A stretch of DNA of 64,000 nucleotides from Psychromonas sp. SP041 (GTDB taxonomy: Bacteria > Pseudomonadota > Gammaproteobacteria > Enterobacterales > Psychromonadaceae), in the NCBI RefSeq assembly GCF_000470315.2, contig NZ_CBRF02000001.1, forward strand, positions 124,001 through 188,000. Direction: 5' to 3'. Below, piece after piece: positions 2 through 17,785 of this stretch. The translations under genes were made by a program, and so were the position numbers. The notes beneath the pieces were generated by a model. That model worked only from the letters and a program-made list of their open reading frames with translations, searched no databases and was not told the DNA's origin. Positions within the stretch are counted from its first letter, which is position 1, and the number at the start of each line of letters is the position of its first letter.

Positions 2-418
2 AAGACCATGGATGATATTTTATCCCTTGCTACACGCCCAGTTATTGTTTCTCACACAGGTGTTAAAGGGACTTGTGACAATCAGAGGAATTTATCAGAT
101 GAGCATATTCGTAAAGTTGCAGGAAGCGGTGGATTGATTGGCATTGGATTTTGGCCTACAGCGGTTTGTGGATCTGAAATTAGTGACATTGTACGTGCCA
201 TAAAATATGTAATTGAGCTTGTGGGTGTTGACTATGTTGCATTAGGTTCCGATTTTGATGGTGCAGTATCTGTAATTATTGATGCAGGTCGACTGCCTGA
301 ATTAACTCAAGCTCTTATTACAGAAGGAATAAGCGATACTGATATTGAAAAAATAATGGGTGGAAATGTTGCTCAGTTCTTTCTTAAATCGCTACCTAAA
401 GAATCTATTGAGCAATAA
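2..418 (+). CDS. Membrane dipeptidase family (peptidase M19), 3' part only
   Basis: The frame is open at the left edge of the window, so this is the C-terminal part of a longer gene. The first ATG in view at position 8 is probably internal, because the frame continues upstream as Lys-Thr. Visible M19 features are the metal-ligand segment VIVSHTGVKG followed by CDNQRNLSDE, the glycine-rich GGLIGIGF, and the YVALGSDFDGAV segment with the conserved Asp pair. The family consists of zinc-dependent hydrolases that cleave dipeptides or related amide bonds, usually about 320-400 residues long. About 138 residues are visible here. It ends 11 bp before the VOC gene and is probably co-transcribed with it. 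The substrate is unknown; a role in processing an amino-acid-derived metabolite of this island is inference. Confidence 0.85.
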   Translation, partial: KTMDDILSLATRPVIVSHTGVKGTCDNQRNLSDEHIRKVAGSGGLIGIGFWPTAVCGSEISDIVRAIKYVIELVGVDYVALGSDFDGAVSVIIDAGRLPELTQALITEGISDTDIEKIMGGNVAQFFLKSLPKESIEQ

Positions 419-429: not shown

Positions 430-813
430 ATGTTTGATCATGTATCTATTAGTGTTCCGTCTATAGAAAGAAGTCGTTTGTTTTATATTAATATTATGAA
501 GGCGCTTAGCATACCTTTAGTTGGTGAGTCGTCTGTTTGGCTTGGTTTTGGTGAACGAGCAAACAAAGAGCAACCGTTACTATCTTATCTTTCAATATTA
601 GAAAGCGATGAATGTTCCAGTGATTATAAAAGGCACTTGTGTTTTAAAGCAAAGGATAGAGAGGAAGTTAATGCTTTCTATAAAGCAGGGTTAGCTAATG
701 GAGGGAAGTGCGATGGTGAAGTCGGACTCCGTGAAAACTACCATAGTCATTATTACGCATGTTTTCTTAAAGACCCTGCGGGAAACAGAATAGAAGTCGT
801 TTGCCATCAATAG
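430..813 (+). CDS. VOC-fold (glyoxalase/bleomycin-resistance/dioxygenase superfamily) protein
   Basis: This is a 127-residue protein. Its beginning, FDHVSISVPSIERSRLFY, is the typical opening strand-helix of a VOC beta-alpha-beta-beta-beta module with a metal-ligand His at residue 4. Its end, FLKDPAGNRIEVVCH, carries the characteristic DPxGNxIE signature with the second-module Glu ligand. The length fits a single two-module VOC domain with no extra domain. VOC proteins include glyoxalases, isomerases, extradiol dioxygenases and drug-binding proteins, so the reaction cannot be named. It follows the M19 dipeptidase by 11 bp with an AAGGAAAG ribosome-binding site before the ATG. It is separated by 199 bp from the next gene, which could therefore have its own promoter. 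Confidence 0.8.
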   Translation: MFDHVSISVPSIERSRLFYINIMKALSIPLVGESSVWLGFGERANKEQPLLSYLSILESDECSSDYKRHLCFKAKDREEVNAFYKAGLANGGKCDGEVGLRENYHSHYYACFLKDPAGNRIEVVCHQ

Positions 814-1012: not shown

Positions 1013-1597
1013 ATGCCTAAGATAGCTGTTTTAACTAATGATTTACAATATGAATTAGTAGAGAAAAATCAAGAAAGGATAAATGCTGTTAATGAAGTGA
1101 AAGATACTTTTTGTAACTTTTTATCTGAAATTAGAGCTAAAGGTCATATTGTGATTCATTTGCAGTTAATAAATCATGAAGGCGATCCTAATGCAGAACG
1201 CTATGATGGATATTTGCCGGTGCAAAAAGGAACACGAGGAGCAGAAATTTTAGAAGAGTTTGTTCATGAGTCTGACATTATTATGGAAAAAAACAAAGAT
1301 AGTGGATTTTATGAAACAGATCTTGATGAAGTGTTAAAGCAGCATGGTGTAGACACTGTTATTGTTACAGGTATGCAAACTCAAATTTGTGTTCAAACAA
1401 CAGCAGCAGACGCTTTCTTTAGAGGTTACAACATTTGGGTTCCTGAAGATGGTGTTGTTTCGGCAAATCCAGATGATAAAAAACGCTCTCTGGACTGGTT
1501 AGGCGGTTATTGCGCAACCATTAGTTCAACCGATGAAATCATATCTGTTTTAAATGAAAAAAATTATTTACCTCGCAAAGAAATATACATCCCATAA
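1013..1597 (+). CDS. Isochorismatase-like cysteine hydrolase
   Basis: This 194-residue protein is of the isochorismatase/nicotinamidase superfamily. The first strand ends in LTNDLQ, supplying the catalytic Asp. The segment VIVTGMQTQICVQTTAADAF holds the nucleophilic Cys and the cis-peptide region, followed by GYNIWVPEDG. The middle Lys of the Asp-Lys-Cys triad is probably in the LPVQKGTRG segment. Family members hydrolyse amides such as nicotinamide, ureides, carbamoyl compounds and aryl vinyl ethers. The substrate is unknown. Because HypF uses carbamoyl phosphate and HypE dehydrates a thiocarboxamide, a carbamoyl- or amide-type substrate in the same pathway is an attractive but untested idea. 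An AAGGAAATTATA leader precedes the ATG. It lies 46 bp upstream of hypE. Confidence 0.85.
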   Translation: MPKIAVLTNDLQYELVEKNQERINAVNEVKDTFCNFLSEIRAKGHIVIHLQLINHEGDPNAERYDGYLPVQKGTRGAEILEEFVHESDIIMEKNKDSGFYETDLDEVLKQHGVDTVIVTGMQTQICVQTTAADAFFRGYNIWVPEDGVVSANPDDKKRSLDWLGGYCATISSTDEIISVLNEKNYLPRKEIYIP

Positions 1598-1643
1598 TTA
1601 ACCGTTAATTTTTTTAATGATTTTTTTTTAATAATTTTATTTA

Positions 1644-2669
1644 GTGAGAATTAAAGTGAATTCAGAAAAATACGTTGAAATTGATCATGGTACTGGCGCG
1701 AAATTGAGCCATGACATTATTAAATTTATCACCGACACATTAGGTGAAGCCCACATTGGTGAAATGGAAGATAGTGCAATAGTGCCTTTTACAGGAAATA
1801 AGGTCGCTATTACTACAGATTCTTATGTGGTTACCCCAATTATATTCGGTAACGGTGACATTGGAAAAATTGCTGTATGCGGAACAGTTAATGATATTGC
1901 AGTTAGTGGTGCCAAACCCCTATATTTGACACTTGCAATGATTTTAGAAGTAGGCTTTAAGTTTTCTGAGCTAAAAACTATTGTGGAATCTATTAGGGAT
2001 ACGGCTATTGAAGCTGGCGTACTAATTGTTGCTGGAGATACGAAGGTAGTTAATAAGGGAGAGGCAGATAAAATATTTATTAATACAACTGGTGTTGGGG
2101 TTCTGGAACGTCCAGAGCTGCACAGTAAAGATGTGAAACCGGGAGACAAAATAATTCTTTCTGGCCCTATAGGCAATCATTCCATTCATTTATTGTCCAT
2201 TCGAGAAGGTTTAGGTTTTGAGACTCGTGTGTTAAGTGATTGTGCACCTTTAAATGGTGTGATTGAAAAGCTATTAACTTCAAAAGTTGGCTGCAATGTC
2301 CGCTCTATTCGAGATGTTACACGAGGCGGTTTGGCAGAGCTATTGCAGGCTTATACTTCAAGTACCGGATATGAAGTTCAAATCGAAGAATCAAGATTGC
2401 CCATTCAATTTGAAACTGTAATGGCTGCAGATATGCTAGGTGTTGATCCAATTCACTTGGCTAATGAGGGTTGTATGGCTTTATTTGTATCTCCTGAGTC
2501 TGCAGATGATGTTGTCTTAGCCCTTAGTAAGCATGAGTATACTAAAGATGCGGTGATTGTTGGTGAAGTAACTGATGTAAAGGCGAATAAGGTTACATTG
2601 ATTACTAAAGAAGGCAATAAGCAATCAATTTTACAGCTTGAAGGTGCTGAACTGCCTCGCTTATGTTAA
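1644..2669 (+). CDS. hypE: HypE, thiocarboxamide dehydratase of cyanide-ligand synthesis
   Basis: HypE takes the carbamoyl group that HypF puts on its C-terminal cysteine and dehydrates it with ATP to a thiocyanate, the source of the CN ligands of NiFe hydrogenases. The 341-residue length is normal. Family features are the AIRS/PurM-type core with DSYVVTPIIFGNGDIGKIAV, GDTKVVNKG, RDVTRGGLAELL and LANEGCM. The protein ends in ELPRLC, so the essential C-terminal Cys acceptor is retained and the enzyme looks intact. It starts with GTG, and the stretch before it is very T-rich. It is followed 153 bp later by hypF. No hypA, B, C or D and no hydrogenase subunit is visible, so its usual partner, the HypCD scaffold, is missing from the window. 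Confidence 0.95.
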   Translation: MRIKVNSEKYVEIDHGTGAKLSHDIIKFITDTLGEAHIGEMEDSAIVPFTGNKVAITTDSYVVTPIIFGNGDIGKIAVCGTVNDIAVSGAKPLYLTLAMILEVGFKFSELKTIVESIRDTAIEAGVLIVAGDTKVVNKGEADKIFINTTGVGVLERPELHSKDVKPGDKIILSGPIGNHSIHLLSIREGLGFETRVLSDCAPLNGVIEKLLTSKVGCNVRSIRDVTRGGLAELLQAYTSSTGYEVQIEESRLPIQFETVMAADMLGVDPIHLANEGCMALFVSPESADDVVLALSKHEYTKDAVIVGEVTDVKANKVTLITKEGNKQSILQLEGAELPRLC

Positions 2670-2768
2670 GGAATTCTTAGCTAATTAAAAAAAATAAGTA
2701 GGGGTGACTTGAATATTTGTTCGAGCACTTCTATTTAACTTTTTAGTTCTTTGATTGTGTCTAAAAAT

Positions 2769-2794
2769 TCATATCAATTATTCGCTTGATATGA
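2769..2794. promoter_or_regulatory. 9-bp inverted repeat upstream of hypF
   Basis: TCATATCAA (2769-2777) and TTGATATGA (2786-2794) form a perfect dyad with an 8-bp spacer. The dyad ends 28 bp before the hypF start. It could be an operator for a dimeric regulator or a leader hairpin. It has the ATCAA/TTGAT halves in the opposite order to an FNR site, so it is not a standard FNR box. Confidence 0.45.
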
Positions 2795-2822
2795 CGTTAA
2801 TATTTATGCCATTTGGTATGAT

Positions 2823-5138
2823 GTGGAGAAATATATCAATAATATTTTAAAGTGTTATAGAGCTAATGGGGTTGTGCAAGGTGTCGGTTTTCGACCTTTC
2901 GTTCACAAATTAGCCTTGGATCATAATTTAACCGGTTGGGTTCTTAATGATTCCAGAGGGGTTTTATTCGCTGTTCAAGGATCACAAGGATTGATCGACA
3001 ATTTTATAAAAACACTAAAGAAAAACCCACCACCTCTGGCACTTATTACAAGCGTAAAAGAAGAATACACAAAAGAATTTGATTCAGACATTATTGGCTT
3101 TAAAGTATTAAAAAGTGATTCGTCTGCAGATGTAAGAACAATTGTGCCACCTGATGCTCATGTTTGTGATGAATGTATAGCAGAGGTCAATGACCCTGAT
3201 AATCGTCGCTTTCAATACCCATTTATTAACTGCACCAACTGTGGTCCTCGATATTCTATAATCAATGGAATGCCATATGATCGACCAAGCACTTCAATGA
3301 GAGATTTTGAAATGTGCTATCAGTGTAATTCAGAGTATTCGGATATAGCTGACCGCCGCTATCATGCTCAGCCCAATGCTTGCTCAACTTGTGGGCCTAA
3401 GTTGTTGTACTGCGACTCTAATAAAATTTATCAAGATAAAAATATTTTAGAATTAGCCAGATTGCACTTGGCACAAGGCAAAATTCTAGCCATTAAATCT
3501 ATTGGCGGTTTTCATCTGTCAATTAATGCTGAAGATGAAGATGCTGTAAATGAGTTAAGAAAGCGTAAGAAGCGTGACTCAAAAGCTTTTGCAGTGATGG
3601 TTTCTGATATTGAGACAGCCAAAAAATATGCAGAAGTTAGTTTTGAGGAAGAGGCTTTGCTAACTAGCCCGCAACGACCTATTGTCCTGCTGAAAAAGAA
3701 AAATAGTAATTTACCTCGTTCATTAGCTCCTAATAATCCTAATTTGGGAGTTATGTTGCCTTCAGCGCCTTTGCATTATTTATTGTTTTCAAAGTCATAT
3801 TTGTCAGTCGTTGTAATGACAAGTGCGAACATTTCAAGCTATCCAACTATTTATAAAAACGATGTCGCTGTGGATAATTTATGTGATATTGCTGATTATT
3901 TCTTAATGAATGACCGTGATATATATACTCGTAATGATGACTCAGTTATTTGTCATTTTAATGAAGGTGGGAATAATAATGTTAGTTTTATCAGGCGGTC
4001 AAAAGGATATGCGCCATTCCCCATTAATGTAAAGTCGAGTATTGAATCAGTTTTAGCAATAGGAGCTGAGCTAAAAACAACATTGGCTTTAAGTAAGGGC
4101 GAGGACGTTTATCTAAGCCAGCATATCGGCGATTTGAAAAATGAGGAATCATTTTCATCTTTACTTGAGTCAGCAGATAAAATGCAGGAGCTATTGAGCA
4201 TCAAGCCTAAAGTGGTTGCTGGAGACCTCCATCCTGGATTCCACTCAACTCGGTATTTTGAAGAAAACTCAGAGCTGCCAGTAATAAGAGTTCAACATCA
4301 TCACGCTCATATGGCTTCATGTATGGCAGAAAACCAACTGGATGAACCTGTTATTGGCAGTATATTTGATGGCACAGGTTACGGGCTGGACGGAACAATA
4401 TGGGGAGGAGAGTTTTTAGTAGGAGGCTATGACCATTTTGAGCGAGCAGGTCACCTATTGCCTTTTAGTCTGCTAGGTGGTGACAAGTCAGTGAAAGAGC
4501 CTATAAGAGTTGCGGTATCTTTACTCCACAGTGCCTTTGGAATGGAAGCTGAAAGTTTGCCTTTGCAATTATATGAAGCAATTTCAGAGGACGAAAAAAG
4601 AGTTTTTCTTAAAATGGCCGATCGTAAAATAAATACATTTATCACAACGAGCATGGGGCGCTTATTCGATGGGGTTTCATCACTGATCGGTGTTTGCCAT
4701 AAAATCAACTATGACGCTCAAGCGGTTATAGAACTCGAAGGCTTGCTTAATAAGAATCATGAGACAACAGATTCTTTTAGTTACGAATTATTAGAGATTA
4801 ATGGTTGTGTTGTTTTAGACCATAGGCCAATTATTCGTGAGATTGTGCATGAATTGCTATCTGGAATAACTGACAAAGCATTACTAAGTCGTCGTTTCCA
4901 TAGCACTATTGTTAAAGCCAACTGTGAAATTTGCCATAAGATATCTCAAAAGACTGGCATTAAGAAAGTCGTCTTAAGTGGAGGTGTTTATATGAATGAA
5001 TTTTTACTGAGCAATACCATTAAAGAATTAAGCGAGAAAAATATAGGTGTTTTTAATCAGAGGCTTGTTCCCTCTAATGATGGAGGTATAGCTCTTGGAC
5101 AGATAATGGTGGCAAATGCTCAGATGAATAAATTCTGA
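2823..5138 (+). CDS. hypF: HypF, carbamoyltransferase of cyanide-ligand synthesis
   Basis: HypF converts carbamoyl phosphate to carbamoyl-AMP and transfers the carbamoyl group to the HypE C-terminal Cys. All four canonical parts are visible in 771 residues. These are an N-terminal acylphosphatase domain with VQGVGFRPFVHKLA (about residues 1-95), two zinc fingers built from CDEC/CTNC and CYQC/CSTC pairs (about 110-185), a YrdC-like domain with LAIKSIGGFHL (about 200-385) and a Kae1-like domain with QHHHAHMASC and VLSGGVYMNE (about 400-771). The start is a GTG; an ATG two bases upstream is in another frame. Length and motifs argue for a functional enzyme. It is followed after 64 bp by the ferredoxin gene. 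The absence of hydrogenase genes implies either trans action on a host hydrogenase or a different acceptor. Confidence 0.95.
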   Translation: MEKYINNILKCYRANGVVQGVGFRPFVHKLALDHNLTGWVLNDSRGVLFAVQGSQGLIDNFIKTLKKNPPPLALITSVKEEYTKEFDSDIIGFKVLKSDSSADVRTIVPPDAHVCDECIAEVNDPDNRRFQYPFINCTNCGPRYSIINGMPYDRPSTSMRDFEMCYQCNSEYSDIADRRYHAQPNACSTCGPKLLYCDSNKIYQDKNILELARLHLAQGKILAIKSIGGFHLSINAEDEDAVNELRKRKKRDSKAFAVMVSDIETAKKYAEVSFEEEALLTSPQRPIVLLKKKNSNLPRSLAPNNPNLGVMLPSAPLHYLLFSKSYLSVVVMTSANISSYPTIYKNDVAVDNLCDIADYFLMNDRDIYTRNDDSVICHFNEGGNNNVSFIRRSKGYAPFPINVKSSIESVLAIGAELKTTLALSKGEDVYLSQHIGDLKNEESFSSLLESADKMQELLSIKPKVVAGDLHPGFHSTRYFEENSELPVIRVQHHHAHMASCMAENQLDEPVIGSIFDGTGYGLDGTIWGGEFLVGGYDHFERAGHLLPFSLLGGDKSVKEPIRVAVSLLHSAFGMEAESLPLQLYEAISEDEKRVFLKMADRKINTFITTSMGRLFDGVSSLIGVCHKINYDAQAVIELEGLLNKNHETTDSFSYELLEINGCVVLDHRPIIREIVHELLSGITDKALLSRRFHSTIVKANCEICHKISQKTGIKKVVLSGGVYMNEFLLSNTIKELSEKNIGVFNQRLVPSNDGGIALGQIMVANAQMNKF

Positions 5139-5202
5139 ATTAGCTCTAATTTTGATTTTGCGCACTTTTACGTATTAAATTATAAGGGGAGTATGTAGTT
5201 AA

Positions 5203-5484
5203 ATGGCAAAAGTTCTTTTCCACCGTAATAATGAGCTTGTTGAGCTTATTACAGGCGATCGATTATTAAGTATTGACGATATAAAGTCTTCCCTTATAAG
5301 TTTTGGTTGCATGCGTGGCACTTGCGGTATGTGTACTATAAATGTTTTTGAAGGAGATGAGAATTTATCAGAAATGGGAGAAAGAGAATGCAATACCTTA
5401 AAAAAGTTTGGACACTGCCTCAAGCGCACTAGATTAGCTTGTCAGTGCAGTATAAAGGGGGATATTGTTATTGAAAAGCTGTAG
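5203..5484 (+). CDS. [2Fe-2S] ferredoxin, plant type, stand-alone
   Basis: This is a 93-residue ferredoxin. The cluster ligands are visible as GCMRGTCGMC (C-x4-C-x2-C) near residues 45-53 and the fourth Cys in RLACQC near the C-terminus, the usual arrangement of adrenodoxin/plant-type [2Fe-2S] domains. It is an electron carrier. Proteins of this type donate to oxygenases, reductases or radical enzymes, and none of these is encoded next to it in view. The spacing to hypF (64 bp) and to the exporter gene (59 bp) suggests one operon. A GGGGAG motif lies upstream of the ATG. An extra Cys beside the fourth ligand (CQC) is present and may be incidental. Confidence 0.88.
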   Translation: MAKVLFHRNNELVELITGDRLLSIDDIKSSLISFGCMRGTCGMCTINVFEGDENLSEMGERECNTLKKFGHCLKRTRLACQCSIKGDIVIEKL

Positions 5485-5543
5485 AACTCGCCTTTAATAA
5501 AAATACAGGCATTATTTAAATCACTAATGGAATATAGAATATT

Positions 5544-6434
5544 ATGAATTATAAAAGTATAGTTTTAGTTTTACTGGTTGTAATAATGTGGGGAGTGAAC
5601 TTCTCAATAATAAAAATTGGTCTAGAAGAACTTCCTCCAATATTGTTTTCTGCCCTGCGGTTTGCTGTAGTTGCCATACCTGCAATATTATTTATCCCTT
5701 TTCCAAAAACATCTATTTTGAATGTTATAGGGGTTGGCTTATTTCTTGGGATATTACAATTTTCCTTTTTGTTTGTCGCTATGGAAGCAGATGCCTCAGC
5801 GGGATTGTCATCTCTAATCCTGCAAACTCAGGTTCTATTTACAATTATTTTAAGTTCGCTTATTTACAAAGAGAAAGTAAGTAAGAGTCAATCATTTGGC
5901 ATTATCGTTGCGGTAATTGGTTTTAGTTTCTTCTTTTATAGCACAGGAGGGAATATAACCACCAAAGGACTGATTTTAATTGTATGCGCAGCATTTTTCT
6001 GGGCTGTTTCAAATGTAATAATGAAAAGAATAGGAAGTATTAATCTTTTACATTTCATGGTTTGGGTCAGTGTTGTACCTCCAATTCCACTTTTGTTTGT
6101 TTCATATTTTTTAGAGTCTCAAGAGCCAATATCTTTATTAATGGCCACAACAGAAAGAACATGGCTATCTGTTCTATTTGTTAGTTACATATCAACTCTT
6201 ATCGGATTTGCTATCTGGGGTTGGTTGCTAAAAAACAATACAGCAGCAACAGTTACTCCATTTGCATTATTAATTCCAGTAGTGGGCATTATTACTTCTA
6301 GTATTCTTTTAGGTGAAAGCTTAAGCATAATAGAAATAATTGGAACAGGTTTAATTATGCTTGGGTTGCTATTTTGTGTTGTTGGAAAAAGGATTTATTC
6401 TTATTTCAAGGCTACTTCAAGCCAATTAAATTGA
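5544..6434 (+). CDS. EamA/DMT-family inner-membrane transporter
   Basis: This 296-residue protein has about ten hydrophobic segments and two EamA repeats. The first begins at IMWGVNFSIIKIGLEELPP and the second at FFWAVSNVIMKR. This is the standard size and architecture of drug/metabolite exporters such as RhaT-like and amino-acid exporters. It closes the plus-strand cargo operon, directly after the ferredoxin, so it probably exports the product or intermediate of this pathway or a toxic side product; that is inference. A second, unrelated-looking EamA gene accompanies the indigoidine cluster at 23.6-24.5 kb. The gene is followed by a bidirectional terminator shared with the convergent pilS gene. 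Confidence 0.85.
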   Translation: MNYKSIVLVLLVVIMWGVNFSIIKIGLEELPPILFSALRFAVVAIPAILFIPFPKTSILNVIGVGLFLGILQFSFLFVAMEADASAGLSSLILQTQVLFTIILSSLIYKEKVSKSQSFGIIVAVIGFSFFFYSTGGNITTKGLILIVCAAFFWAVSNVIMKRIGSINLLHFMVWVSVVPPIPLLFVSYFLESQEPISLLMATTERTWLSVLFVSYISTLIGFAIWGWLLKNNTAATVTPFALLIPVVGIITSSILLGESLSIIEIIGTGLIMLGLLFCVVGKRIYSYFKATSSQLN

Positions 6435-6581: not shown

Positions 6582-6605
6582 AAAAGGAGCCAAAAGGCTC
6601 CTTTT
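6582..6605. terminator. Bidirectional intrinsic terminator between the EamA gene and pilS
   Basis: AAAAGGAGCC and GGCTCCTTTT form a perfect 10-bp stem around an AAAA loop, with an A-tract on the left side that becomes a U-tract for minus-strand transcripts. It ends the pil operon after pilS, 15 bp beyond the stop, and could also stop plus-strand readthrough from the cargo operon. Confidence 0.85.
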
Positions 6606-6619: not shown

Positions 6620-7165
6620 TTATCTATCAGTAAACGTAATGTCTTGATCACCATCACATGCCACAGCAGCAGAGGCAACGCCATCAATAGCTGAGCCATT
6701 TACACTTACTTCTTCAAAGTGTCTGTATGTTGACGAAACAATACTTGTACATGCACCTTCAGGAACGCCATACATTGTAATAATGAAACTGTCATCATCA
6801 CTATCTTGAGTTAGAGGCTCAACATTGTAACCATTGCTGTACCATGAGCTTTTAATATTTTGATCATCGTCATCACTGTTACGCATTTGCTCAGGAAAAG
6901 ATACGTCACTCATAATTACTGAGTTTTCTAAGCCTTCGTAGTCACCTTGTGTTTTAAACATGTGCTGAATAGAAGCACTTAGTGCATTAAGGTTTTGTGT
7001 TTCTTCTTGCGCATCTTCAGTATTTCCCGTGTTATTGAATGACGAGATAATCAAGATTGTTGCTGCACCAATGATGGTTAATGCAAAAATGATTTCCATT
7101 AACGTAAAGCCAAATTGCTCTTTACCTGGCTTACGTAGCTGTAAATTTCTGATACTTTTATTCAT
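6620..7165 (-). CDS. pilS: PilS, type IV prepilin of the thin mating pilus
   Basis: This is the major pilin precursor, 181 residues. A class-III-type leader of about 18 residues ends in a Gly followed by FTLMEIIFALTIIG, the hydrophobic assembly helix with the conserved Glu at +5. The globular domain is rich in Asp and Ser and has two late cysteines (GACTS and VACDGD) that can form the usual C-terminal disulphide loop. In IncI plasmids PilS builds the thin pilus needed for liquid mating. It is the last gene of the pil operon, 195 bp below pilR, and precedes a strong terminator. No prepilin peptidase (pilU) and no shufflon adhesin (pilV) follow it, so these would have to come from elsewhere. 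Confidence 0.88.
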   Translation of the reverse strand: MNKSIRNLQLRKPGKEQFGFTLMEIIFALTIIGAATILIISSFNNTGNTEDAQEETQNLNALSASIQHMFKTQGDYEGLENSVIMSDVSFPEQMRNSDDDDQNIKSSWYSNGYNVEPLTQDSDDDSFIITMYGVPEGACTSIVSSTYRHFEEVSVNGSAIDGVASAAVACDGDQDITFTDR

Positions 7166-7360
7166 GTGTTACTCCGATATTATTATTATTATTTTTATTA
7201 ATTATCAATTAAATATTAGCACAAAAAAGACACCAATCAATATTTAATATTACATTTTTTGTTTTTAAGTCAATACAATTAATTGCTACATTGACTTCTT
7301 TTCTTATTATTTCACTTAATATATCTTTTTTGGTCTGTCAGTCGGGGGTTTGGTGGGTGG

Positions 7361-8437
7361 TTATCCAACAACATTTCCCATAGATTGTGAAAGTGCCCAG
7401 AAACAGTAATAAATCCATCCAATAAATCCAGTTACACACATCATTGCAATAATATTTAGTGCACCAGAGATTGCATTGATTCTTTCGATAGAGTTCTTAA
7501 TTGACGCTCTACCAATAGAGTCCATTGCATCTTGAATATTGTCTGTTTGACTAAAAATGCTTATATCAATGCCTGTTTCTTTATCAAGGAATCCACTGTC
7601 TAGAGCTTCACCATTCTTAGCACCTTCTTCCATCTTCGTCATAATTATATCTAGATGAGAGGCAACATACTTAGAAGACATTTTTTTTAAACCTTTAAAA
7701 GACTCAAAAAGAGGAATACCTGTTTTAAGCATAGATGCTGAAGAAATTAGAAATATTGAGCTTTGAAATGACTTATACATGCTCCATGGTGGAATCTTAT
7801 CTAAAATTAGCCTAACTGAACCAGTAACATTGCCTAAGCTCCATCCAAGGGCATAGGTGCCACCTACGATTGCTAGTAAGACGGTCCACCAGTAACTTTC
7901 AACAAATTGCGATAGAACATATAGCTTTTTGGTAGCATCTGGCCATGATGCAGGATCTAATGTTTCCACTAACTCAGGAACTGCTTGAGTACTAAACATA
8001 TAAACTATAAAGAACAACATTGTGAACAAAATACATGGGTAAGCTAGTGAGCCAATAATTGCTCCTTTCATGTCTTTTGATGCCTGAGTACTGTCTAACG
8101 CATTTAAAAAGGCAACTCCCAGGTCATCAGACTGTTCCCCGGCACGAATAAGCATGGCTTCACCAGGCGGGACCCAGCTAGCCATGGCTTGGCTGAGTTT
8201 TTTACCATTTTCAATGTCTTTGTACCATTCGCCCAGCATGATCCCCCGAGCATCACTTGGACTAAGCTTGGTATAAGCATCAGAAAGCTTCATCAATATG
8301 ACGTCCAGTGGTACTTGTTCTTCTAGAAACACTGCAATTTTCTTATAAATAGAAAGTCGCTGACTAGTGCTTAGTGAGAATTTAGCCCAAGCTAATTTCA
8401 TTTTGTTACGGTCTAAGTCTTTTAATGAATGAATCAT
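7361..8437 (-). CDS. pilR: PilR, inner-membrane platform protein (type II secretion F family)
   Basis: This is a 358-residue polytopic protein of the GspF/PilC/PilR family, which anchors the assembly ATPase in the inner membrane. Hydrophobic segments are seen near residues 130-150 (CILFTMLFFIVYMF), 180-200 (WWTVLLAIVGGTYALG) and at the C-terminus (IIAMMCVTGFIGWIYYCFWA). Two GspF repeats are suggested by the motifs PLDVIL and GIPLFES. Size and position directly after the ATPase pilQ match R64 pilR. A GGAG ribosome-binding site lies seven bases before the ATG, immediately preceded by an ATTTTT hexanucleotide repeat that could affect translation. Confidence 0.88.
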   Translation of the reverse strand: MIHSLKDLDRNKMKLAWAKFSLSTSQRLSIYKKIAVFLEEQVPLDVILMKLSDAYTKLSPSDARGIMLGEWYKDIENGKKLSQAMASWVPPGEAMLIRAGEQSDDLGVAFLNALDSTQASKDMKGAIIGSLAYPCILFTMLFFIVYMFSTQAVPELVETLDPASWPDATKKLYVLSQFVESYWWTVLLAIVGGTYALGWSLGNVTGSVRLILDKIPPWSMYKSFQSSIFLISSASMLKTGIPLFESFKGLKKMSSKYVASHLDIIMTKMEEGAKNGEALDSGFLDKETGIDISIFSQTDNIQDAMDSIGRASIKNSIERINAISGALNIIAMMCVTGFIGWIYYCFWALSQSMGNVVG

Positions 8438-8447
8438 TTAGTACTCC

Positions 8448-8480
8448 ATTTTTATTTTTATTTTTATTTTTATTTTTTTT
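8448..8480. repeat. Hexanucleotide repeat (ATTTTT)4 plus T-run upstream of pilR
   Basis: Four ATTTTT units are followed by A and eight T in the 77-bp pilQ-pilR gap. On the transcribed strand it reads as AAAAAT units that abut the GGAG ribosome-binding site of pilR. Such tracts can change unit number by slippage and could tune translation or mRNA structure. This is inference. Confidence 0.7.
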
Positions 8481-8514
8481 GTATTGTGCCTGCTTTTCAA
8501 GCAGGGTTAACGAG

Positions 8515-10470
8515 TTAGCAATCTGTTTCGTCATCTTTACAAAACGAAAGCACTTGAGCAGGACTGTTGTTTTCTTCAGAGAGGTCATCTTCTTCTTTGA
8601 ACAACTTAGATTGAAATGACTCTTTTTCATCTTTGTTCTGTTTATGAATAGAGTCAGATCTTTTATCAGTTGATGAGACTTCTTCTGCAGTTAGTTTTAA
8701 ACTTTTTTCTAGTAAATCCAGATCAATGACATCGTCAAGTAAGTCGACTTTCTTTTCAGCATCTCTAGGGTCAGTAATACCGTTTAATACTTTTTCTATC
8801 GCGTGGTCTTTGATGAGTTTTCCACCCATTTTCACATGGTAGTAAGTTGCTAGATTAACCGAGCCTTTTTCGAATGCACTTAAAATTAACGGGTTAGGGC
8901 TTATAACTTCTGCTACAACTGTTCTTCCCACTACACCATTAACGCATTCAGGATTTTTGCATTTGTGTTCATTGCTGTAATTCCTGAATCTGACGTTTTC
9001 AACAGTAAGACCTTTTGCAGCACCTTTAACTCGTTTAATAATGCTAAGTGATTTTTTATTTTTAGATTTTTCTGCTTCTTTAACAAAATCGCTATAACTA
9101 ATAGAACAATCTGGACACGAGATTGGTAGTAATGTTTGGTAAATTAATGCAGATATAAAATCAGACGAACCCAATGTTTCAGAGTTAACACCAAAGCTTT
9201 TTAGTCTAGGAATAATACCTACAGCAGATGCCGCATGCACAGTGGTGAATGCAGTGTGACCTGACTGAACAGCGCCGACCAATAGTTTTGCAGAGTACTC
9301 ATCTCGAACCTCACCAACCATAAGTATGTCGGGGTCGCATCGCATTGCATGTTTAATCGCTTCTGCAAATGGGTTTTCATTTGGCCTATTTCTATTTCTT
9401 ACTACACCATGTTGAGTTGCACCTATGATAGTGTATTCCGTTGGATCTTCTACGGTAATAACTTTAATCTTAGGGCCATCATCTCCCCAGTTTTCTTTAA
9501 TGATAGTGTTGAGCATTGTACTGATGGTTGTAGATTTACCAGAGCCGGTAGTACCTGCCACAATAATTACACCTGTAGGCCTGCTCATTGCTCGATAAAT
9601 TTCAACTAGTGAGCCTTCCGAATACCCCAGAGTGTCAATTATTCTATCCGATTCAGATTCATCATCGAGCTTAAGTATTCTCATGATCAAATCAAAGCCC
9701 TGGCTTGCAGACAAAGTGTTTAATCGAATACCCAGGTCTTGTCCATCGATACGCCTCTCAATCCTTGCGGCCTGAGATTTGGTTTCAATAAAGCTTGGTT
9801 CTTTTTCATCTGCCATTACTTGATATACAACGCTCGACATATCCCGTGCATATGCAACAGTCCAAGGTGTAAATGTGTATAGCTCACCATGCTTACGGAA
9901 TCTAACTCTTGCTTCCTTGCGTCTCACTTCAAAATGAATATCCGATACTTTTTCTCGAAGCGCTTGAGTTACTAGTGAATCAAAGTCAGAAATAAAGCCT
10001 TCTTTTCTAGCACGATCAAAGCTATCAGTGTCTTTAATTTTTTCATCTTTTTCATAAGTGATTTGAATTATCTGTCTTGGCGCAATGAGTTTTGTTACAG
10101 AGTACCCTTTGTCGACACACTTATTCTTAATTGTAAGGTAGGTGTTATCTACTTGAGCCCTACTATTTGACTCAGTGGAGCAGATTATAGAAACCATTTT
10201 TTTTGAAGGATTTACAAGTAAAACAATGTAGTTTCTTCTTTGCTCCTCATTTAAAGGAATTTCTTCGTCTTGATAGGAAATTACCTTTTCGTAATTGGGA
10301 ACATTTTCTTTTTTTGTAATAGTTTCAGTGCCTGAAGTACTAGATTTAACTCTTGGTTTAGTTGGCACTTTACTGTTTGAACTATTTTTCTTTTTGATTA
10401 TTTGAGAGCCGGCCTTTTTTTTGGGCTTTTTTCTCTGAAATAAACTGTCAATAAAGTTATTTAGGCTCAT
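8515..10470 (-). CDS. pilQ: PilQ, pilus-assembly ATPase (GspE/PilB family)
   Basis: This 651-residue cytoplasmic ATPase powers thin-pilus extension. Visible motifs are Walker A GTTGSGKST near residue 310, the Asp box before VITVEDPTEY, Walker B ILMVGEVRDEYS, and the His box HTAFTTVHA. A CPDC...CKNPEC set of four cysteines further on is the zinc-binding module of GspE-type ATPases. The N-terminus (about 120 residues) is Lys/Ser-rich and probably flexible, and a charged tail of about 60 residues rich in Asp, Glu and Lys follows the core. It lies between pilP and pilR in the R64-like order. The pilP terminator about 130-165 bp upstream of its start implies that it has its own promoter or depends on readthrough. 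Confidence 0.93.
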   Translation of the reverse strand: MSLNNFIDSLFQRKKPKKKAGSQIIKKKNSSNSKVPTKPRVKSSTSGTETITKKENVPNYEKVISYQDEEIPLNEEQRRNYIVLLVNPSKKMVSIICSTESNSRAQVDNTYLTIKNKCVDKGYSVTKLIAPRQIIQITYEKDEKIKDTDSFDRARKEGFISDFDSLVTQALREKVSDIHFEVRRKEARVRFRKHGELYTFTPWTVAYARDMSSVVYQVMADEKEPSFIETKSQAARIERRIDGQDLGIRLNTLSASQGFDLIMRILKLDDESESDRIIDTLGYSEGSLVEIYRAMSRPTGVIIVAGTTGSGKSTTISTMLNTIIKENWGDDGPKIKVITVEDPTEYTIIGATQHGVVRNRNRPNENPFAEAIKHAMRCDPDILMVGEVRDEYSAKLLVGAVQSGHTAFTTVHAASAVGIIPRLKSFGVNSETLGSSDFISALIYQTLLPISCPDCSISYSDFVKEAEKSKNKKSLSIIKRVKGAAKGLTVENVRFRNYSNEHKCKNPECVNGVVGRTVVAEVISPNPLILSAFEKGSVNLATYYHVKMGGKLIKDHAIEKVLNGITDPRDAEKKVDLLDDVIDLDLLEKSLKLTAEEVSSTDKRSDSIHKQNKDEKESFQSKLFKEEDDLSEENNSPAQVLSFCKDDETDC

Positions 10471-10601
10471 GATGCATTATTCTTATAGTTATTATTTGCG
10501 CTATATAATATACATTAAATTATGTAAGTGGTCTATTAATGGTGGGGCGGAATGGTTATTTTGCAGTTTTAGTTATGGTAAGTGGTTTTTCTTAATGTGA
10601 C

Positions 10602-10634
10602 AAAAAAAGCCTCTTGTTTAAGGAGGCTTTTTTC
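10602..10634 (-). terminator. Intrinsic terminator downstream of pilP
   Basis: GCCTC (10609-10613) pairs with GAGGC (10623-10627), extended by A/T pairs, and is flanked by A and T runs on both sides. It lies just after the pilP stop on the minus strand, between pilP and pilQ. Partial termination here would set lower expression of pilQ-R-S than of pilL-N-O-P. Confidence 0.75.
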
Positions 10635-10639
10635 TTTTA

Positions 10640-11473
10640 CTATCTAGGCATAGGTGGGACGCTTCCAATATCTGATGGCGCTTTAACTATTCCAAGCTTA
10701 GCTTCTTCAAGAGATTTTTGGTATTCAAGCTCTTCTCTAGAGATTGTTTTAGAGTTTGCAAAAGCTTTGGTTGTAATACTTAAGAATGCTACTTTGCCTT
10801 TGTATGAAACTTCAGCACCGTGTGTGTTCACCTTCGTCACAATAGCACCAGGGATGATCTCTTCCCCAACACCGCGATCAGCAATGTTATTTTCAAAGTA
10901 AAACTGAGCACTTTTGTTTGTGCCAATTCCAGATGTTTTAGTAACAAACAGCTTTTCTTTTAGAAAGTCATTGACTTCCATTTGCTCATCAACTTTTTTA
11001 TTGTTATCTTCAATAGAAAGTTTTAGATCATCGATTTGTGCTTCATAATCAGAAATCAATTCTGCTTTTTCTTTTTCCCAAAGCTCTTTTTGCTCTTTGA
11101 CCATAGCTTCAACTTTAAGCTTACTTTGATTTTCTTTGATTTTATAAATCGCATCTTGAACTTCTAATGCAGACATATCGAGCTGTAACATTTCAAGCTC
11201 ATGTTGTTTGCGCGAAGTTTCAGCAGAACGGCTTGCTGAAATCTTAGGATCAATAAAAGCTTCTGCATTAGAATAAATGTCTTTTTCTTTATGCTTTAGC
11301 TTGTCTGTTTTTTCCGTAACTTTCGTTTTGTTATTACTTTCTTTTACCGAAACTTTGCCTTCATTGTCACTAATAACTTCACCTAAGAAGTCAGAAGTAC
11401 TTGCGGCATTCGCAGTCATTGACATCAAGATAGATGCCAGAGCAATTGTGATTAAATTTTTACTACTTTTCAT
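10640..11473 (-). CDS. pilP: PilP, periplasmic pilus assembly protein
   Basis: The chosen start gives a clean Sec signal peptide, MKSSKNLITIALASILMS, ending in TANA. An upstream in-frame start at 11515 would add 14 residues and spoil the signal. The mature protein has a long charged coiled-coil stretch (about residues 60-160, rich in Lys and Glu) followed by a small beta-rich domain with GIGTNKSAQF and a proline-containing end. R64 PilP is a periplasmic protein that links the inner- and outer-membrane parts of the thin pilus machine, like other PilP/GspC-type proteins. It overlaps the end of pilO by 11 bp, indicating translational coupling. A terminator lies directly downstream. Confidence 0.8.
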   Translation of the reverse strand: MKSSKNLITIALASILMSMTANAASTSDFLGEVISDNEGKVSVKESNNKTKVTEKTDKLKHKEKDIYSNAEAFIDPKISASRSAETSRKQHELEMLQLDMSALEVQDAIYKIKENQSKLKVEAMVKEQKELWEKEKAELISDYEAQIDDLKLSIEDNNKKVDEQMEVNDFLKEKLFVTKTSGIGTNKSAQFYFENNIADRGVGEEIIPGAIVTKVNTHGAEVSYKGKVAFLSITTKAFANSKTISREELEYQKSLEEAKLGIVKAPSDIGSVPPMPR

Positions 11474-12839
11474 AAAGAACCCCTTCAGCTTTCCACTTGA
11501 ATGAATTCTTAACAAGTGAAATAGAAATTTTGTTTAATGTAAATGTTTTTGCGGAATCAAAGATATTTATAAGTGCCGACAATTTATCTCGGTTATCACC
11601 TTGAATGACAACGCTAGTTGTTTTAAATTTTAACTGCCTAGTGTTCTCTTGTTTTCTAAGCTTTTTATCAAGACCTTTAATTTTTTCCTGCCTTTCACCA
11701 AGGTCAATTCGGTCCATGCCCCACATGTACCCCATTGAGATTAAATCATGCATCATATGTTCGTGTTGATATGTCGCAGTTTCAATGAATTTAACAAGAT
11801 CAAAATCGTCAGGAAGTTCATTGTTGATCTTGTCAATGGCTTCAAATTCACTTCTTGCATACCTACCAGTTAGGTCTGCAACAGTAGTTTTGTCATTTTT
11901 AATCCCAAGCTTTAATGAAAGGGGCGTCCCCACTTGAGAGCGCTCCCACAGCACATTTATACCATTTGGATTTTTAGAGTTAAAAGATATTTCATTTGCT
12001 TTCCAGCCATTAATATATTTTTCTTGAACAATATCAAAAGCAAGAATGCGTCTAATGATTTGAGATGAGTTTGAGTTATTAAACTCTTCCGTAAGCCATT
12101 TAAGCTCTTCTTTTTTTGCATCAGATAAAATTTCTTCAGTTGTTTTTACTTTAGTATGAATAAGCTTAGAAAAATCAACTTGAGGAGTGAACTCTTTCTC
12201 TTTTTCAAAAAGCGAACTTCCGAATTGAGAGTATGCGCCACCACCAATAACAGCTAAAATAACAATGGCCATCAATGTGTTTTTTGATTTTGACTCAGTG
12301 TTACCAATTCGGTAAGAATTAAATTCTTTCCCAATTTTTGTGATTTCTGCTTTAAGTAATAGCTCGTCAAAACTTAATGTTTCATCAGGACTTGGAAGTC
12401 CTTCAACACCAGTGCTTTCAACAAGCGATTGGCTGTACACAAATGGTGGAGATTCTTTGTAGTTATCTAAAATCTTTTCAAATTCGATAGCTACATTAGA
12501 GATATTGATAACAATATCTCCGCCAACTAACACTTCTGAATCAGCAATGGCACAAATCCAAACTTCTTGTGCAGAAACTTTTTCAACAAAGATAATGTTG
12601 CTATACCCATCAGCAAGAATAGCGGCACCAGATACAATGCCAATACCAGATTTTTCTTGAGTTAAAGCAACTTGATGTGAAGTTGAGCCGTCTTCTTTTA
12701 CGGATTTACGAATAAAACCATATGGACGGTCAACTTCATTAGCCATAACAAGCATTTCTGCGTTAGGCTTTTCACCCGACAAACTAGCCCAGTACAGGCC
12801 AGTAGCGATGGTGTGTTTATTTAGAGTGACCTTCTTCAT
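11463..12839 (-). CDS. pilO: PilO, pilus accessory protein with one transmembrane segment
   Basis: This is a 458-residue protein. An N-terminal cytoplasmic domain of about 190 residues precedes a single transmembrane helix (TLMAIVILAVIGGGAYSQF, about residues 197-215) and a periplasmic C-terminal domain. The family in IncI plasmids (PilO2/PilO) is needed for the thin pilus and probably joins the ATPase to the periplasmic complex. The place between the secretin gene pilN and pilP is the canonical one. It overlaps pilP by 11 bp and begins 15 bp after pilN. There are no catalytic motifs. The assignment rests on topology, length and gene order. Confidence 0.8.
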   Translation of the reverse strand: MKKVTLNKHTIATGLYWASLSGEKPNAEMLVMANEVDRPYGFIRKSVKEDGSTSHQVALTQEKSGIGIVSGAAILADGYSNIIFVEKVSAQEVWICAIADSEVLVGGDIVINISNVAIEFEKILDNYKESPPFVYSQSLVESTGVEGLPSPDETLSFDELLLKAEITKIGKEFNSYRIGNTESKSKNTLMAIVILAVIGGGAYSQFGSSLFEKEKEFTPQVDFSKLIHTKVKTTEEILSDAKKEELKWLTEEFNNSNSSQIIRRILAFDIVQEKYINGWKANEISFNSKNPNGINVLWERSQVGTPLSLKLGIKNDKTTVADLTGRYARSEFEAIDKINNELPDDFDLVKFIETATYQHEHMMHDLISMGYMWGMDRIDLGERQEKIKGLDKKLRKQENTRQLKFKTTSVVIQGDNRDKLSALINIFDSAKTFTLNKISISLVKNSFKWKAEGVLYEK

Positions 12840-12854
12840 AAATGGTAATGCCTA

Positions 12855-14507: not shown

Positions 14508-15299
14508 TTAGTTTGCGACCTCTTGGCGGTAACCTGCTTCTGTAATTAGCAGTACTTTATTCATTTTGTGGAACTTAGCCGTAAGCGGCACTTTGTTTTT
14601 TCTCATTGAGTAAAGCAGGGTGTCAACTACACCACCTTCGCCAATGAATTTACCTGTTAGTACAGCGCCTTTGACGACAGGGAAATCAACTTTAAGGCTT
14701 TCATCCCAAACCAAGCTCCAGCCTGCCTTTTTAGCCCATTCAGCAAGATTCTCTCTTAATGTTAGGCTTGATTTGATCTCCCATACTTCAGGCACTTCTT
14801 TTGCGAGCAAAACAGCAAGCTCTGCATTTTTAGAAACCCCGATAGCATGTTCGTCGTTATTAATCTTGATATTAAGGTTATTTTGAGCGCCAATTGCATA
14901 GACAACATCTTCCCAAGTTTGTCCGCCTTTCCAGCTAACAGCCATATTATCTAGGCCATCATCAATATGAATAAACCAGTCTTTCGAGTTCGGCACTACT
15001 TTCTCTAGAGCAATAAATAGTGGTACATTTTTACCAAATCTCATCGTAGAGGCGTTCGGTGCTTCAACCTCTTCTCTCATCAAGAAAGAACCATGAACTG
15101 TTGATTGACCACTAACAGAGGTTACTTCCTCTTTTACTGCAACCATTTCAGGGCTTTCTTTTTTATCAAAACTGTCAATTTTTACAGTTTGTCTAACAAC
15201 AGGAGATACGTAAAGCTGTGCGCTGGCTTGTTGCGAAAGTCCGCAAACAATAAGTGCTCCAACAGTGCGACCAGTTAATTTATTTTTATATTTATTCAT
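14508..15299 (-). CDS. pilL: PilL/TcpQ-like periplasmic pilus protein
   Basis: This 263-residue protein has a signal peptide ending near QASA and a C-terminal TcpQ/PilL-type domain: VWEIKSSLTLRENLAEWAKK, then GWSLVWDE, and YSMRKNKVPLTAKF near the end. Proteins with this domain dock on the secretin and help it insert. R64 pilL is the first gene of the pil cluster and encodes a lipoprotein; here the signal looks Sec-type rather than a lipobox. It is the first gene of the minus-strand pil operon, 26 bp below the -10 of a well-formed promoter inside a nested palindrome. The symbol is by position and domain, not by close match. Confidence 0.75.
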   Translation of the reverse strand: MNKYKNKLTGRTVGALIVCGLSQQASAQLYVSPVVRQTVKIDSFDKKESPEMVAVKEEVTSVSGQSTVHGSFLMREEVEAPNASTMRFGKNVPLFIALEKVVPNSKDWFIHIDDGLDNMAVSWKGGQTWEDVVYAIGAQNNLNIKINNDEHAIGVSKNAELAVLLAKEVPEVWEIKSSLTLRENLAEWAKKAGWSLVWDESLKVDFPVVKGAVLTGKFIGEGGVVDTLLYSMRKNKVPLTAKFHKMNKVLLITEAGYRQEVAN

Positions 15300-15324
15300 A
15301 ACTTGATGCCTTTATTTTTTCGAT

Positions 15325-15375: not shown

Positions 15376-15453
15376 GAAATATCATTATTTTTATTTTTCA
15401 TGGGTGAGGGTGGTTTTTGTTATAGTATGTCAGTGCGTGTTAGAGAACACTAA

Positions 15454-15699: not shown

Positions 15700-15701
15700 T
15701 G

Positions 15702-17776: not shown

Positions 17777-17785
17777 ATCTCAGCC

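What the first reader, a model, noticed from the sequence alone, without database searches (positions are those of the whole stretch)
1013..6434. HypE and HypF with a ferredoxin and an amidase-like hydrolase, but no hydrogenase
Seen in sequence: intact HypE with its C-terminal Cys and full-length HypF, together with an isochorismatase-like hydrolase, a stand-alone [2Fe-2S] ferredoxin and an exporter, preceded by an M19 dipeptidase and a VOC protein. Known: HypF and HypE together make an enzyme-bound thiocyanate that normally goes to Fe on HypCD. Here HypA-D and the hydrogenase are absent from the window. The inference is that the carbamoyl/cyano chemistry is used to build or modify a small molecule (a nitrile, thiocyanate or carbamoyl compound) that the EamA protein exports. 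I know of no described pathway with this exact gene set.
Basis: partly seen in the sequence, partly recalled or inferred. Interest (0 to 1): 0.85.

Follow-up and report, generated by a model that had tools for sequence, protein, structure and literature searches.

The report
HypE–HypF repurposed for small-molecule biosynthesis
Two enzymes known for making the cyanide ligands of hydrogenases occur here, and in other bacteria, as a separate family that travels with a small cysteine hydrolase, often in biosynthetic gene clusters, so they probably build cyano- or carbamoyl-modified small molecules instead of hydrogenases.

Summary
The genome has HypE and HypF but no HypC, HypD or [NiFe] large subunit. 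The conserved unit is a triad: isochorismatase-like cysteine hydrolase (ISO), HypE, HypF. Of 81 other loci found by ISO, 73 hold HypE and 75 HypF; the ferredoxin is in none. Cassette HypE is one clade (100/100) apart from 31 comparison HypEs, nearly all beside HypD. Catalytic residues are kept, but the tail is PRLC in 71 of 71 intact cassette HypEs and PRIC in 31 of 31 others. HypD is absent from 25 of 49 cassette genomes searched. Amino-acid ligases or NRPSs lie within the fetched stretch in 39 of 81. Left of the window the gene run continues with a diiron oxidase, an acetyltransferase-like protein and a diaminobutyrate transaminase. Best reading: HypEF makes a protein-bound carbamoyl/cyano group that ISO, in place of HypCD, helps pass to a small molecule, here probably diaminobutyrate. 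Acceptor, product and ISO's step are inferred. The hydrogenase-complement rival fails for this genome.

The parts
2..418 (+). M19 dipeptidase, 3' part (complete gene C1:123216-124418)
   Evidence: Peptidase_M19 127.5 bits for the window part, 235.6 bits whole; no match in 81 other ISO loci
430..813 (+). VOC/glyoxalase-fold protein, role unknown
   Evidence: PF00903 26.9 bits; no match in 81 other ISO loci
1013..1597 (+). ISO: isochorismatase-like cysteine hydrolase, usual partner of this HypEF pair; Asp10, Lys93, Cys126
   Evidence: PF00857 116 bits; AlphaFold model pLDDT 94 matches triuret, biuret and N-carbamoylsarcosine hydrolases; Cys126 in 81 of 82 rows, one gap
1644..2669 (+). HypE of the cassette clade, tail LPRLC, Lys134/Glu275/Cys341 present
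   Evidence: TIGR02124 406.7 bits; clade 100/100; residues
2823..5138 (+). HypF of the cassette clade, full-length carbamoyltransferase
   Evidence: TIGR00143 775.5 bits; clade SH-aLRT 100
5203..5484 (+). stand-alone [2Fe-2S] ferredoxin; possible electron donor of the upstream diiron oxidase (inference)
   Evidence: PF00111 27.5 bits; weak NqrF/ferredoxin matches; 0 of 81 other loci
5544..6434 (+). EamA/DMT exporter; nearest NCBIfam model O-acetylserine/cysteine exporter, below its cut-off
   Evidence: PF00892 127.5 bits; NF008523 203.7 bits, cut-off 472; 9 of 81 other loci
6582..6605 (-). terminator-like hairpin after EamA, near the end of the gene run
   Evidence: 2 such sites in the region against 3.7 on average in shuffles, so weak

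Best explanation
ISO-HypE-HypF is a biosynthetic module that split off from hydrogenase maturation. HypF activates carbamoyl phosphate and loads the C-terminal Cys of HypE with a carbamoyl group; HypE dehydrates it with ATP to a Cys-bound (iso)thiocyanate (known chemistry of the family; inferred here because the residues are kept). In place of HypCD-Fe, the acceptor is reached through ISO, whose conserved Cys126 takes or directs the cyano/carbamoyl group onto a small-molecule nucleophile (inferred). In the window the nucleophile is most likely L-2,4-diaminobutyrate made by the upstream transaminase, giving a carbamoyl, cyanamide or cyclic-guanidine amino acid that the diiron oxidase and acetyltransferase-like protein modify and EamA exports (inferred). 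In other lineages the product goes to ATP-grasp ligases or NRPSs (inferred from neighbours). My odds: dedicated non-hydrogenase small-molecule role 0.85; cyano rather than carbamoyl group delivered 0.6; ISO as the transfer partner rather than a plain hydrolase 0.45; diaminobutyrate as acceptor in this locus 0.5.
For: No HypC, HypD or [NiFe] large subunit in the genome. HypD has no match in 25 of 49 whole cassette genomes searched. Separate clade for HypE (71 cassette against 31 comparison rows, one branch, 100/100) and HypF (73 against 23), also where a genome holds both kinds. Lys134, Glu275, Cys341 in 71 of 71 and 31 of 31; tail residue 340 Leu in 71 of 71 against Ile in 31 of 31. HypE in 73 and HypF in 75 of 81 ISO loci; ISO in 0 of 31 comparison HypE loci. 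CarA and CarB directly after HypF in L102, CarB-like proteins in 5 more of 81 loci. ATP-grasp ligase or NRPS in 39 of 81 cassette loci and 0 of 31 comparison loci (the comparison stretches are shorter, 14 against 19 kb on average). Diaminobutyrate: the window transaminase passes TIGR00709 (554.5 bits, cut-off 401.6); P. phymatum carries an EctB-type diaminobutyrate transaminase (606.4 bits, cut-off 552.2) beside the cassette; in P. phymatum nifA-mutant nodules these genes and the diaminobutanoate level fall together (PMC8305402, passages).
Against: No product, assay or mutant is known. Enterobacterial cassettes opened have only LysR, a HAD phosphatase and an MFS exporter beside the triad, so one acceptor pathway cannot serve all lineages. 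A transaminase match is in 21 of 81 loci, some weak or fragments. The nearest solved structures of ISO are hydrolases, and most ISO rows keep the Asp-Lys-Cys triad, which fits hydrolysis too. The nifA data are correlative: the hydrogenase genes next door fall as well. HypD does match in 24 of 49 cassette genomes (23 over the cut-off). G+C of the cassette does not differ from the rest of the window (0.359 against 0.363).
Confidence: 0.72

Rival explanations
1. The pair is a spare or remnant of hydrogenase maturation and serves a hydrogenase elsewhere.
For: HypE and HypF pass the hydrogenase-maturation models; in P. phymatum the cassette lies beside a hydrogenase operon; HypD matches in 24 of 49 cassette genomes.
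Against: No HypC, HypD or [NiFe] large subunit in this genome; no HypD in 25 of 49 cassette genomes; separate clades; different tail; ISO seen at 0 of 31 comparison loci.
Confidence: 0.03
2. HypE acts only as a carbamoyl carrier (thiocarbamate, no cyano step) and the product is a ureido or carbamate compound; ISO is an ordinary amidohydrolase that trims or edits carbamoylated intermediates.
For: ISO's nearest structures include triuret, biuret, N-carbamoylsarcosine and ureidoacrylate hydrolases. MboA, the closest solved relative of the window run's diiron oxidase, belongs to a pathway that ends in a citrulline (ureido) peptide.
Against: Direct carbamoylation of metabolites is done by HypF-like enzymes without HypE (class III, TobZ/GdmN; PMC9633730 passages), so keeping HypE with Lys134 and Glu275 in 71 of 71 would need another reason. 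Seven Nocardia ISOs have lost the Asp and Lys of the triad but keep Cys126, beside HypE/HypF.
Confidence: 0.25
3. HypEF builds an iron-cyanide cofactor on another scaffold, for example for the diiron oxidase or the ferredoxin.
For: CN on iron is the only fate of the HypE group that I know of; an iron oxidase (by homology) and a ferredoxin are in the gene run.
Against: The diiron oxidase matches in 9 and the ferredoxin in 0 of 81 other ISO loci. A search for some other shared metalloprotein was not made.
Confidence: 0.04
4. The module releases free cyanide, thiocyanate or cyanamide as the product.
For: Minimal enterobacterial cassettes hold little beyond the triad, a phosphatase, an exporter and a regulator; one simple product could serve many pathways.
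Against: A HAD phosphatase and exporters suggest an organic product; other loci add ligases or NRPSs.
Confidence: 0.1

Closest known systems
[NiFe]-hydrogenase maturation proteins HypE and HypF
   Same: Same domains and same catalytic residues
   Different: No HypC/HypD/hydrogenase in this genome; separate clade; tail PRLC instead of the published PR(I/V)C; ISO partner
Class III carbamoyltransferases of natural products (TobZ, GdmN)
   Same: Use carbamoyl phosphate and a Kae1-like domain to modify secondary metabolites (PMC9633730, passages)
   Different: As described there they transfer from carbamoyl-AMP straight to the metabolite; here full-length HypF comes with HypE that keeps the dehydration residues
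Mangotoxin cluster (mboA-F)
   Same: A heme-oxygenase-like diiron oxidase (MboA, E 1.6e-15); 23 of 81 related cassettes have an ATP-grasp ligase; MboA needs a flavin/[2Fe-2S] redox partner
   Different: In the passages seen, mangotoxin is made by MboA-E from Leu, Ala and Arg, with no HypE or HypF named; no arginine deiminase or ATP-grasp ligase among the genes of the window run that were scanned
Isochorismatase-like hydrolases (triuret/biuret hydrolase, N-carbamoylsarcosine amidase)
   Same: Fold, and Asp-Lys-Cys triad in most members
   Different: Window ISO is 45-71% identical to 32 cassette ISOs but 20-29% to the 50 best-listed solved chains; Asp and Lys lost in 7 Nocardia members
Ectoine genes (EctB)
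   Same: Diaminobutyrate transaminase family; an EctB equivalog beside the cassette in P. phymatum
   Different: The acetyltransferase-like proteins matched no NCBIfam model; ectoine synthase was not noted among the genes scanned and not searched for

Membership tests
[NiFe]-hydrogenase maturation (Hyp) system | HypE and HypF with catalytic residues | tested here: met
[NiFe]-hydrogenase maturation (Hyp) system | HypC-HypD acceptor complex in the genome | tested here: not met
   no match in the own genome; controls rang
[NiFe]-hydrogenase maturation (Hyp) system | a [NiFe] hydrogenase to mature | tested here: not met
   PF00374 no match
[NiFe]-hydrogenase maturation (Hyp) system | HypE tail PR(I/V)C | tested here: not met
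   PRLC in 71 of 71 intact cassette HypEs, PRIC in 31 of 31 comparison HypEs; motif from PMC4506123 passages
[NiFe]-hydrogenase maturation (Hyp) system | nickel insertion proteins HypA/HypB | not tested
   not searched in the genome
[NiFe]-hydrogenase maturation (Hyp) system | HypE carbamoylated and cyanated by HypF | not testable with these tools
   residues kept; needs an assay
Class III (TobZ/GdmN) carbamoyltransferases | carbamoyl transfer to the metabolite without a HypE partner | tested here: not met
   HypE matches in 73 of 81 ISO loci; window HypF has the acylphosphatase and zinc-finger domains as well
Mangotoxin-type cluster | MboA-like diiron oxidase | tested here: met
   phmmer E 1.6e-15 to 9ypi over residues 41-228 of 264
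Mangotoxin-type cluster | ATP-grasp ligases and arginine deiminase | tested here: inconclusive
   none among the genes of the window run scanned; ATP-grasp in 23 of 81 related loci; deiminase not searched
Isochorismatase-like cysteine hydrolases | fold | tested here: met
   Foldseek best E 1.1e-16, TM 0.70-0.89 among the top ten
Isochorismatase-like cysteine hydrolases | Asp-Lys-Cys triad | tested here: met
   window D10, K93, C126; over 82 rows Asp 74, Lys 75, Cys 81; 7 Nocardia rows have Gly and Arg instead of Asp and Lys; the triad itself is recalled from family knowledge

The most novel reading that the evidence does not exclude
A biological cyanation module for metabolites: HypF and HypE make a protein-bound thiocyanate, ISO Cys126 accepts the CN in the place that HypD-Fe holds in hydrogenase maturation, and hands it to an amine. 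With diaminobutyrate this gives an N-cyano amino acid that can close to a cyclic guanidine (an amino analogue of ectoine), which is then oxidised, ligated or exported; other lineages cyanate other nucleophiles for peptide products.
Probability: 0.2. Interest if true: 0.95.

Novelty: new variant of a known kind. Interest (0 to 1): 0.82.

Why it matters
HypE and HypF are read as markers of [NiFe]-hydrogenase capacity; this clade shows that reading to be unsafe in genomes of Streptomyces, Nocardia, Sorangium, enterobacteria and beta-rhizobia. If the module delivers a cyano group to metabolites it would be a new enzymatic route to nitriles, cyanamides or guanidines from carbamoyl phosphate and ATP, with a one-residue tail marker (PRLC against PRIC) for genome mining, and in P. 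phymatum one whose genes depend on NifA in root nodules. The biochemical test is short: three proteins and a mass measurement.

Tried and rejected
Rejected: hydrogenase complement for this genome; ferredoxin, M19 and VOC as parts of the core (0 of 81 loci each at tblastn E 1e-4); chance pairing (72 of 72 complete loci within 6.5 kb). HypD in relatives: of the 74 loci I asked for the genomes of 50 (a choice of mine that left out mostly MAGs and close relatives), 49 were held, 24 have a match (23 over the cut-off, the 24th partial), 25 none; completeness of these genomes is not stated. Genus: 7 of 24 genomes have a full HypF, 6 of those 7 have HypD, only the window's genome lacks it. HypE has no match in 8 of 81 loci (L058, L093, L101, L104, L106, L108, L109, L110) and HypF in 6 (L099, L101, L104, L108, L109, L110); some of these are short contigs or MAGs, others appear to lack the gene. 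One opened plasmid record (L036) has a HypE fragment of this kind among transposases with no ISO annotated; it was not in the 81. Dropped before counts: L096 (HypE cut short) from the HypE tree and residue counts; HypE/HypF sequences with under 70% coverage of a query. Of the 31 comparison HypE loci, 25 show HypD in the stretch fetched; in L023-L026 HypD lies just outside, and L117 and L119 show none, so their hydrogenase role is assumed. My own ORF calls in GC-rich loci fused or missed genes, hence the tblastn counts. Promoter and terminator scans gave no more sites than shuffles. Literature: ten searches of the open library listed no paper on HypE/HypF in biosynthetic clusters that I could recognise, and on the P. 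phymatum locus tags only PMC8305402; most listed papers were not opened, and subscription journals are mostly missing. PMC13260591, which mentions HypE and 'hydrogenase-independent', proved on its passages to be about carbamoyl phosphate supply in Thermococcus. Papers seen as passages: PMC8305402, PMC13185094, PMC13108848, PMC9633730, PMC13260591; PMC4506123 as outline, abstract and passages. The roles of HypE Lys134/Glu275 are recalled, not from a call; the residues were only counted. Group letters and 'cassette' are mine.
Full report
WHAT IS THERE. The window is C1:124001-188000 of a 4.8 Mb genome. HypE passes TIGR02124 (406.7 bits) and ends LPRLC; HypF passes TIGR00143 (775.5 bits) with acylphosphatase, zinc-finger, YrdC and Kae1-like domains. 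The genome holds no match to HypD, HypC or the [NiFe] large subunit; each search rang in E. coli and other control genomes. HypA and HypB were not searched.

THE GENE RUN STARTS LEFT OF THE WINDOW. C1:108001-126000 (L003) gives on the same strand: LysR (C1:118484-119455), a heme-oxygenase-like protein (119881-120675; nearest solved structure MboA of mangotoxin, E 1.6e-15, then BesC at E 0.004; its Pfam match PF14518 is just under the cut-off), an acetyltransferase-like protein (120665-121294, weak PF13420, below cut-off), a 166-aa protein with no Pfam match (121206-121706), a diaminobutyrate transaminase (121789-123219; TIGR00709 554.5 bits, cut-off 401.6), then M19, VOC, ISO, HypE, HypF, ferredoxin, EamA. 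Divergent to LysR lie a 2OG-Fe dioxygenase (PF10014) and a LysE exporter. On both sides are pilin genes in the other orientation, a prepilin-like protein (C1:114121-115788) and PilS (window 6620-7165), and the window carries DotH, DotI, DotG-like and DotB-like proteins of an I-type conjugation system (the DotG and DotB matches are below those models' cut-offs). So the run looks like cargo of a conjugative element, though its G+C equals that of the rest. ISO of this kind is in 3 of 394 genomes of the order, the own one included, and in none of the 20 other genomes of the genus that the answer lists.

A FAMILY OF CASSETTES. Window HypE is 52-61% identical to HypEs on 10 plasmids of Streptomyces, Paraburkholderia, Salmonella, Citrobacter and Rhizobium; apart from one fragment (59%), the other records among the 60 of 147 listed are at 42% or less. 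Six of the ten were opened and have an isochorismatase-like gene at the cassette; three of the other four have an ISO match in the listing (Streptomyces NBC_01445, P. phenoliruptrix, P. sabiae), as has the fourth (second Citrobacter plasmid). The fragment has none annotated. The cassette is on the chromosome of 14 of 5426 E. coli genomes (one opened). A scan of 84,980 species genomes with an alignment of 8 ISO proteins gave 74 loci. With 7 plasmid or E. coli loci that is 81: HypE matches in 73, HypF 75, transaminase 21, acetyltransferase 13, LysR 10, diiron oxidase 9, EamA 9, 2OG dioxygenase 7, the 166-aa protein 4, ferredoxin, M19, VOC and LysE 0. The loci were found by ISO, so the HypE and HypF counts are what inform. 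In the 72 loci with all three genes they span under 6.5 kb, and 66 run ISO-HypE-HypF on one strand. Pairwise distances of ISO and HypE correlate at 0.81, HypE and HypF at 0.93, over 71 loci, as expected of a unit inherited together, though relatedness alone contributes.

NOT THE HYDROGENASE KIND. A tree of 71 cassette and 31 comparison HypEs (6 from the own genus, 9 from plasmids, 16 from 15 genomes that also carry the cassette) parts the two by one branch, 100/100, length 0.78. 25 of the 31 have HypD in the stretch fetched, four more just outside it, two (L117, L119) show none. HypF gives the same split (73 against 23, SH-aLRT 100, short search). Both trees carry long-branch warnings for some rows, not for the split itself. 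Lys134, Glu275 and Cys341 are in 71 of 71 and 31 of 31; 57 positions are nearly invariant in both. Three positions pass my test for clade-specific residues, and two lie in the tail: Ala335 against Glu, and Leu340 against Ile, the latter 71 of 71 against 31 of 31. The published tail motif is PR(I/V)C, and the outward tail has been interpreted as contacting HypD or HypF (PMC4506123, passages). So the loading and dehydration residues are kept and the tail that meets the acceptor has changed. HypD was sought in 49 whole cassette genomes: 24 match, 25 do not. Within 84 cassette stretches (the 81, L124, L125 and the window) HypD is in none and HypC in 2, both Paraburkholderia.

WHAT THE NEIGHBOURS SAY. 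Partners differ by lineage: Streptomyces NRPS clusters with an SHMT-like enzyme (11 of 81) and a peptidase C26 protein (10); Streptomyces with ATP-grasp amino-acid ligases; Amycolatopsis and Saccharothrix with a DegT aminotransferase and CarB-like proteins; the S. clavuligerus type with an arginase-family protein (7) and a protein annotated DUF3865; enterobacteria with LysR, HAD phosphatase (10) and MFS exporter (8); Sorangium with an NRPS. ATP-grasp ligase in 23 and NRPS in 16 of 81, together 39; in the 31 comparison loci (14 kb on average against 19 kb) none. L102 has CarA and CarB over their cut-offs right after HypF; CarB-like proteins lie in 5 other loci, one of them (L100) on the other strand, which may be the housekeeping gene. 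This fits carbamoyl phosphate as donor.

DIAMINOBUTYRATE. A transaminase relative accompanies the cassette on several branches of the HypE tree: for 17 marked rows the tree needs at least 6 changes of state (rows marked by hand, weak ones included). In P. phymatum the transaminase beside the cassette is of another subfamily, EctB (606.4 bits, cut-off 552.2), while pieces of a window-type gene lie after HypF (tblastn in L044 and L045; read by eye in L032). Two kinds of diaminobutyrate transaminase in one neighbourhood point to the same substrate. L055 adds an aspartate-kinase-like protein (below the models' cut-offs). In P. phymatum nodules the genes depend on NifA (log2 change in a nifA mutant: EctB -7.58, acetyltransferase -8.06, ISO -6.29, HypE -5.17, HypF -7.47), and the authors report less aspartate semialdehyde and 2,4-diaminobutanoate in mutant nodules, which they suggest could be connected with EctB (PMC8305402, passages). 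The hydrogenase genes next door fall too, so this is correlation. The diiron oxidase is absent from the Paraburkholderia and Photobacterium loci.

ISO. The AlphaFold model (pLDDT 94.2) matches triuret hydrolase, N-carbamoylsarcosine amidase, biuret hydrolase and RutB at 20-29% identity among the 50 rows shown; maleamate amidase, nicotinamidase and isochorismate lyase are in that list too. Cys126 is in 81 of 82 rows (one gap), Cys167 in 80; Asp10 and Lys93 are Gly and Arg in the 7 Nocardia rows, all beside HypE and HypF matches. A plain amidohydrolase should need that Asp; a Cys that takes a group from HypE need not. Suggestive, not proof.

MECHANISM AND CONFIDENCE. Shown: gene content, absence of HypC, HypD and hydrogenase, clades, residue conservation, tail change, partners. 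From known family chemistry: HypF carbamoylates HypE and HypE dehydrates to (iso)thiocyanate; the CN ligands come from carbamoyl phosphate (PMC4506123 and PMC13260591, passages). Inferred: ISO as partner in transfer, small-molecule acceptor, diaminobutyrate here, later oxidation and acetylation, export by EamA, ferredoxin as electron source for the oxidase by analogy with the [2Fe-2S] partner MboB (PMC13185094, passages).

NOVELTY. Ten full-text searches of the open library listed no description of HypE/HypF in biosynthetic clusters; most subscription journals are not in it. HypF-like enzymes that carbamoylate metabolites directly are known (PMC9633730, passages). I rate this a new variant of a known kind: a known enzyme pair with a new partner and, most likely, a new acceptor; a cyanation of metabolites, if shown, would deserve more.

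Noticed in passing
window 6620-21475, 36937-42799: I-type (type IVB) conjugation genes: PilS, a T2SSF protein, a T2SSE ATPase, DotB-like, DotI, DotH and DotG-like proteins; the contig is probably a conjugative plasmid or integrative element, and the HypEF run sits between a prepilin-like gene and pilS.
   Followed up: partly
window 23607-29697: A one-module NRPS-like protein (AMP-binding, carrier, thioesterase; 1272 aa) next to an arylmalonate-decarboxylase-like protein and what reads as an EamA-like exporter (by eye): perhaps a second small biosynthetic cluster.
   Followed up: partly
L003:1506-3884 (C1:109506-111884): Two neighbouring radical SAM/SPASM-like proteins, weak matches to peptide-maturase models (below those models' cut-offs), possibly a peptide-modifying system.
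   Followed up: partly
L003:8835-10226: 2OG-Fe dioxygenase (PF10014) with a LysE exporter, divergent from LysR of the cassette; relatives of the dioxygenase occur in 7 of 81 cassette loci, which are loci with NRPS genes.
   Followed up: partly
L076, L080, L083, L085, L086, L089, L091: Seven Nocardia ISO proteins lost the catalytic Asp and Lys but keep the Cys, beside HypE and HypF.
   Followed up: partly
L101 and L125: Gilliamella has LysR, ISO and HAD phosphatase without HypE/HypF matches; another genome of the window's order has ISO and HypF without HypE and an ATP-grasp gene in two pieces, apparently a decaying copy.
   Followed up: partly
L035 (E. coli chromosome): The enterobacterial cassette lies a few genes from tRNA-Asn and integrase remnants in the one E. 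coli genome opened; it is in 14 of 5426 genomes.
   Followed up: no
L036 (Streptomyces sp. NBC_01591 plasmid): A fragment of a cassette-type HypE (AIR synthase-related) among transposases, with no ISO annotated.
   Followed up: no
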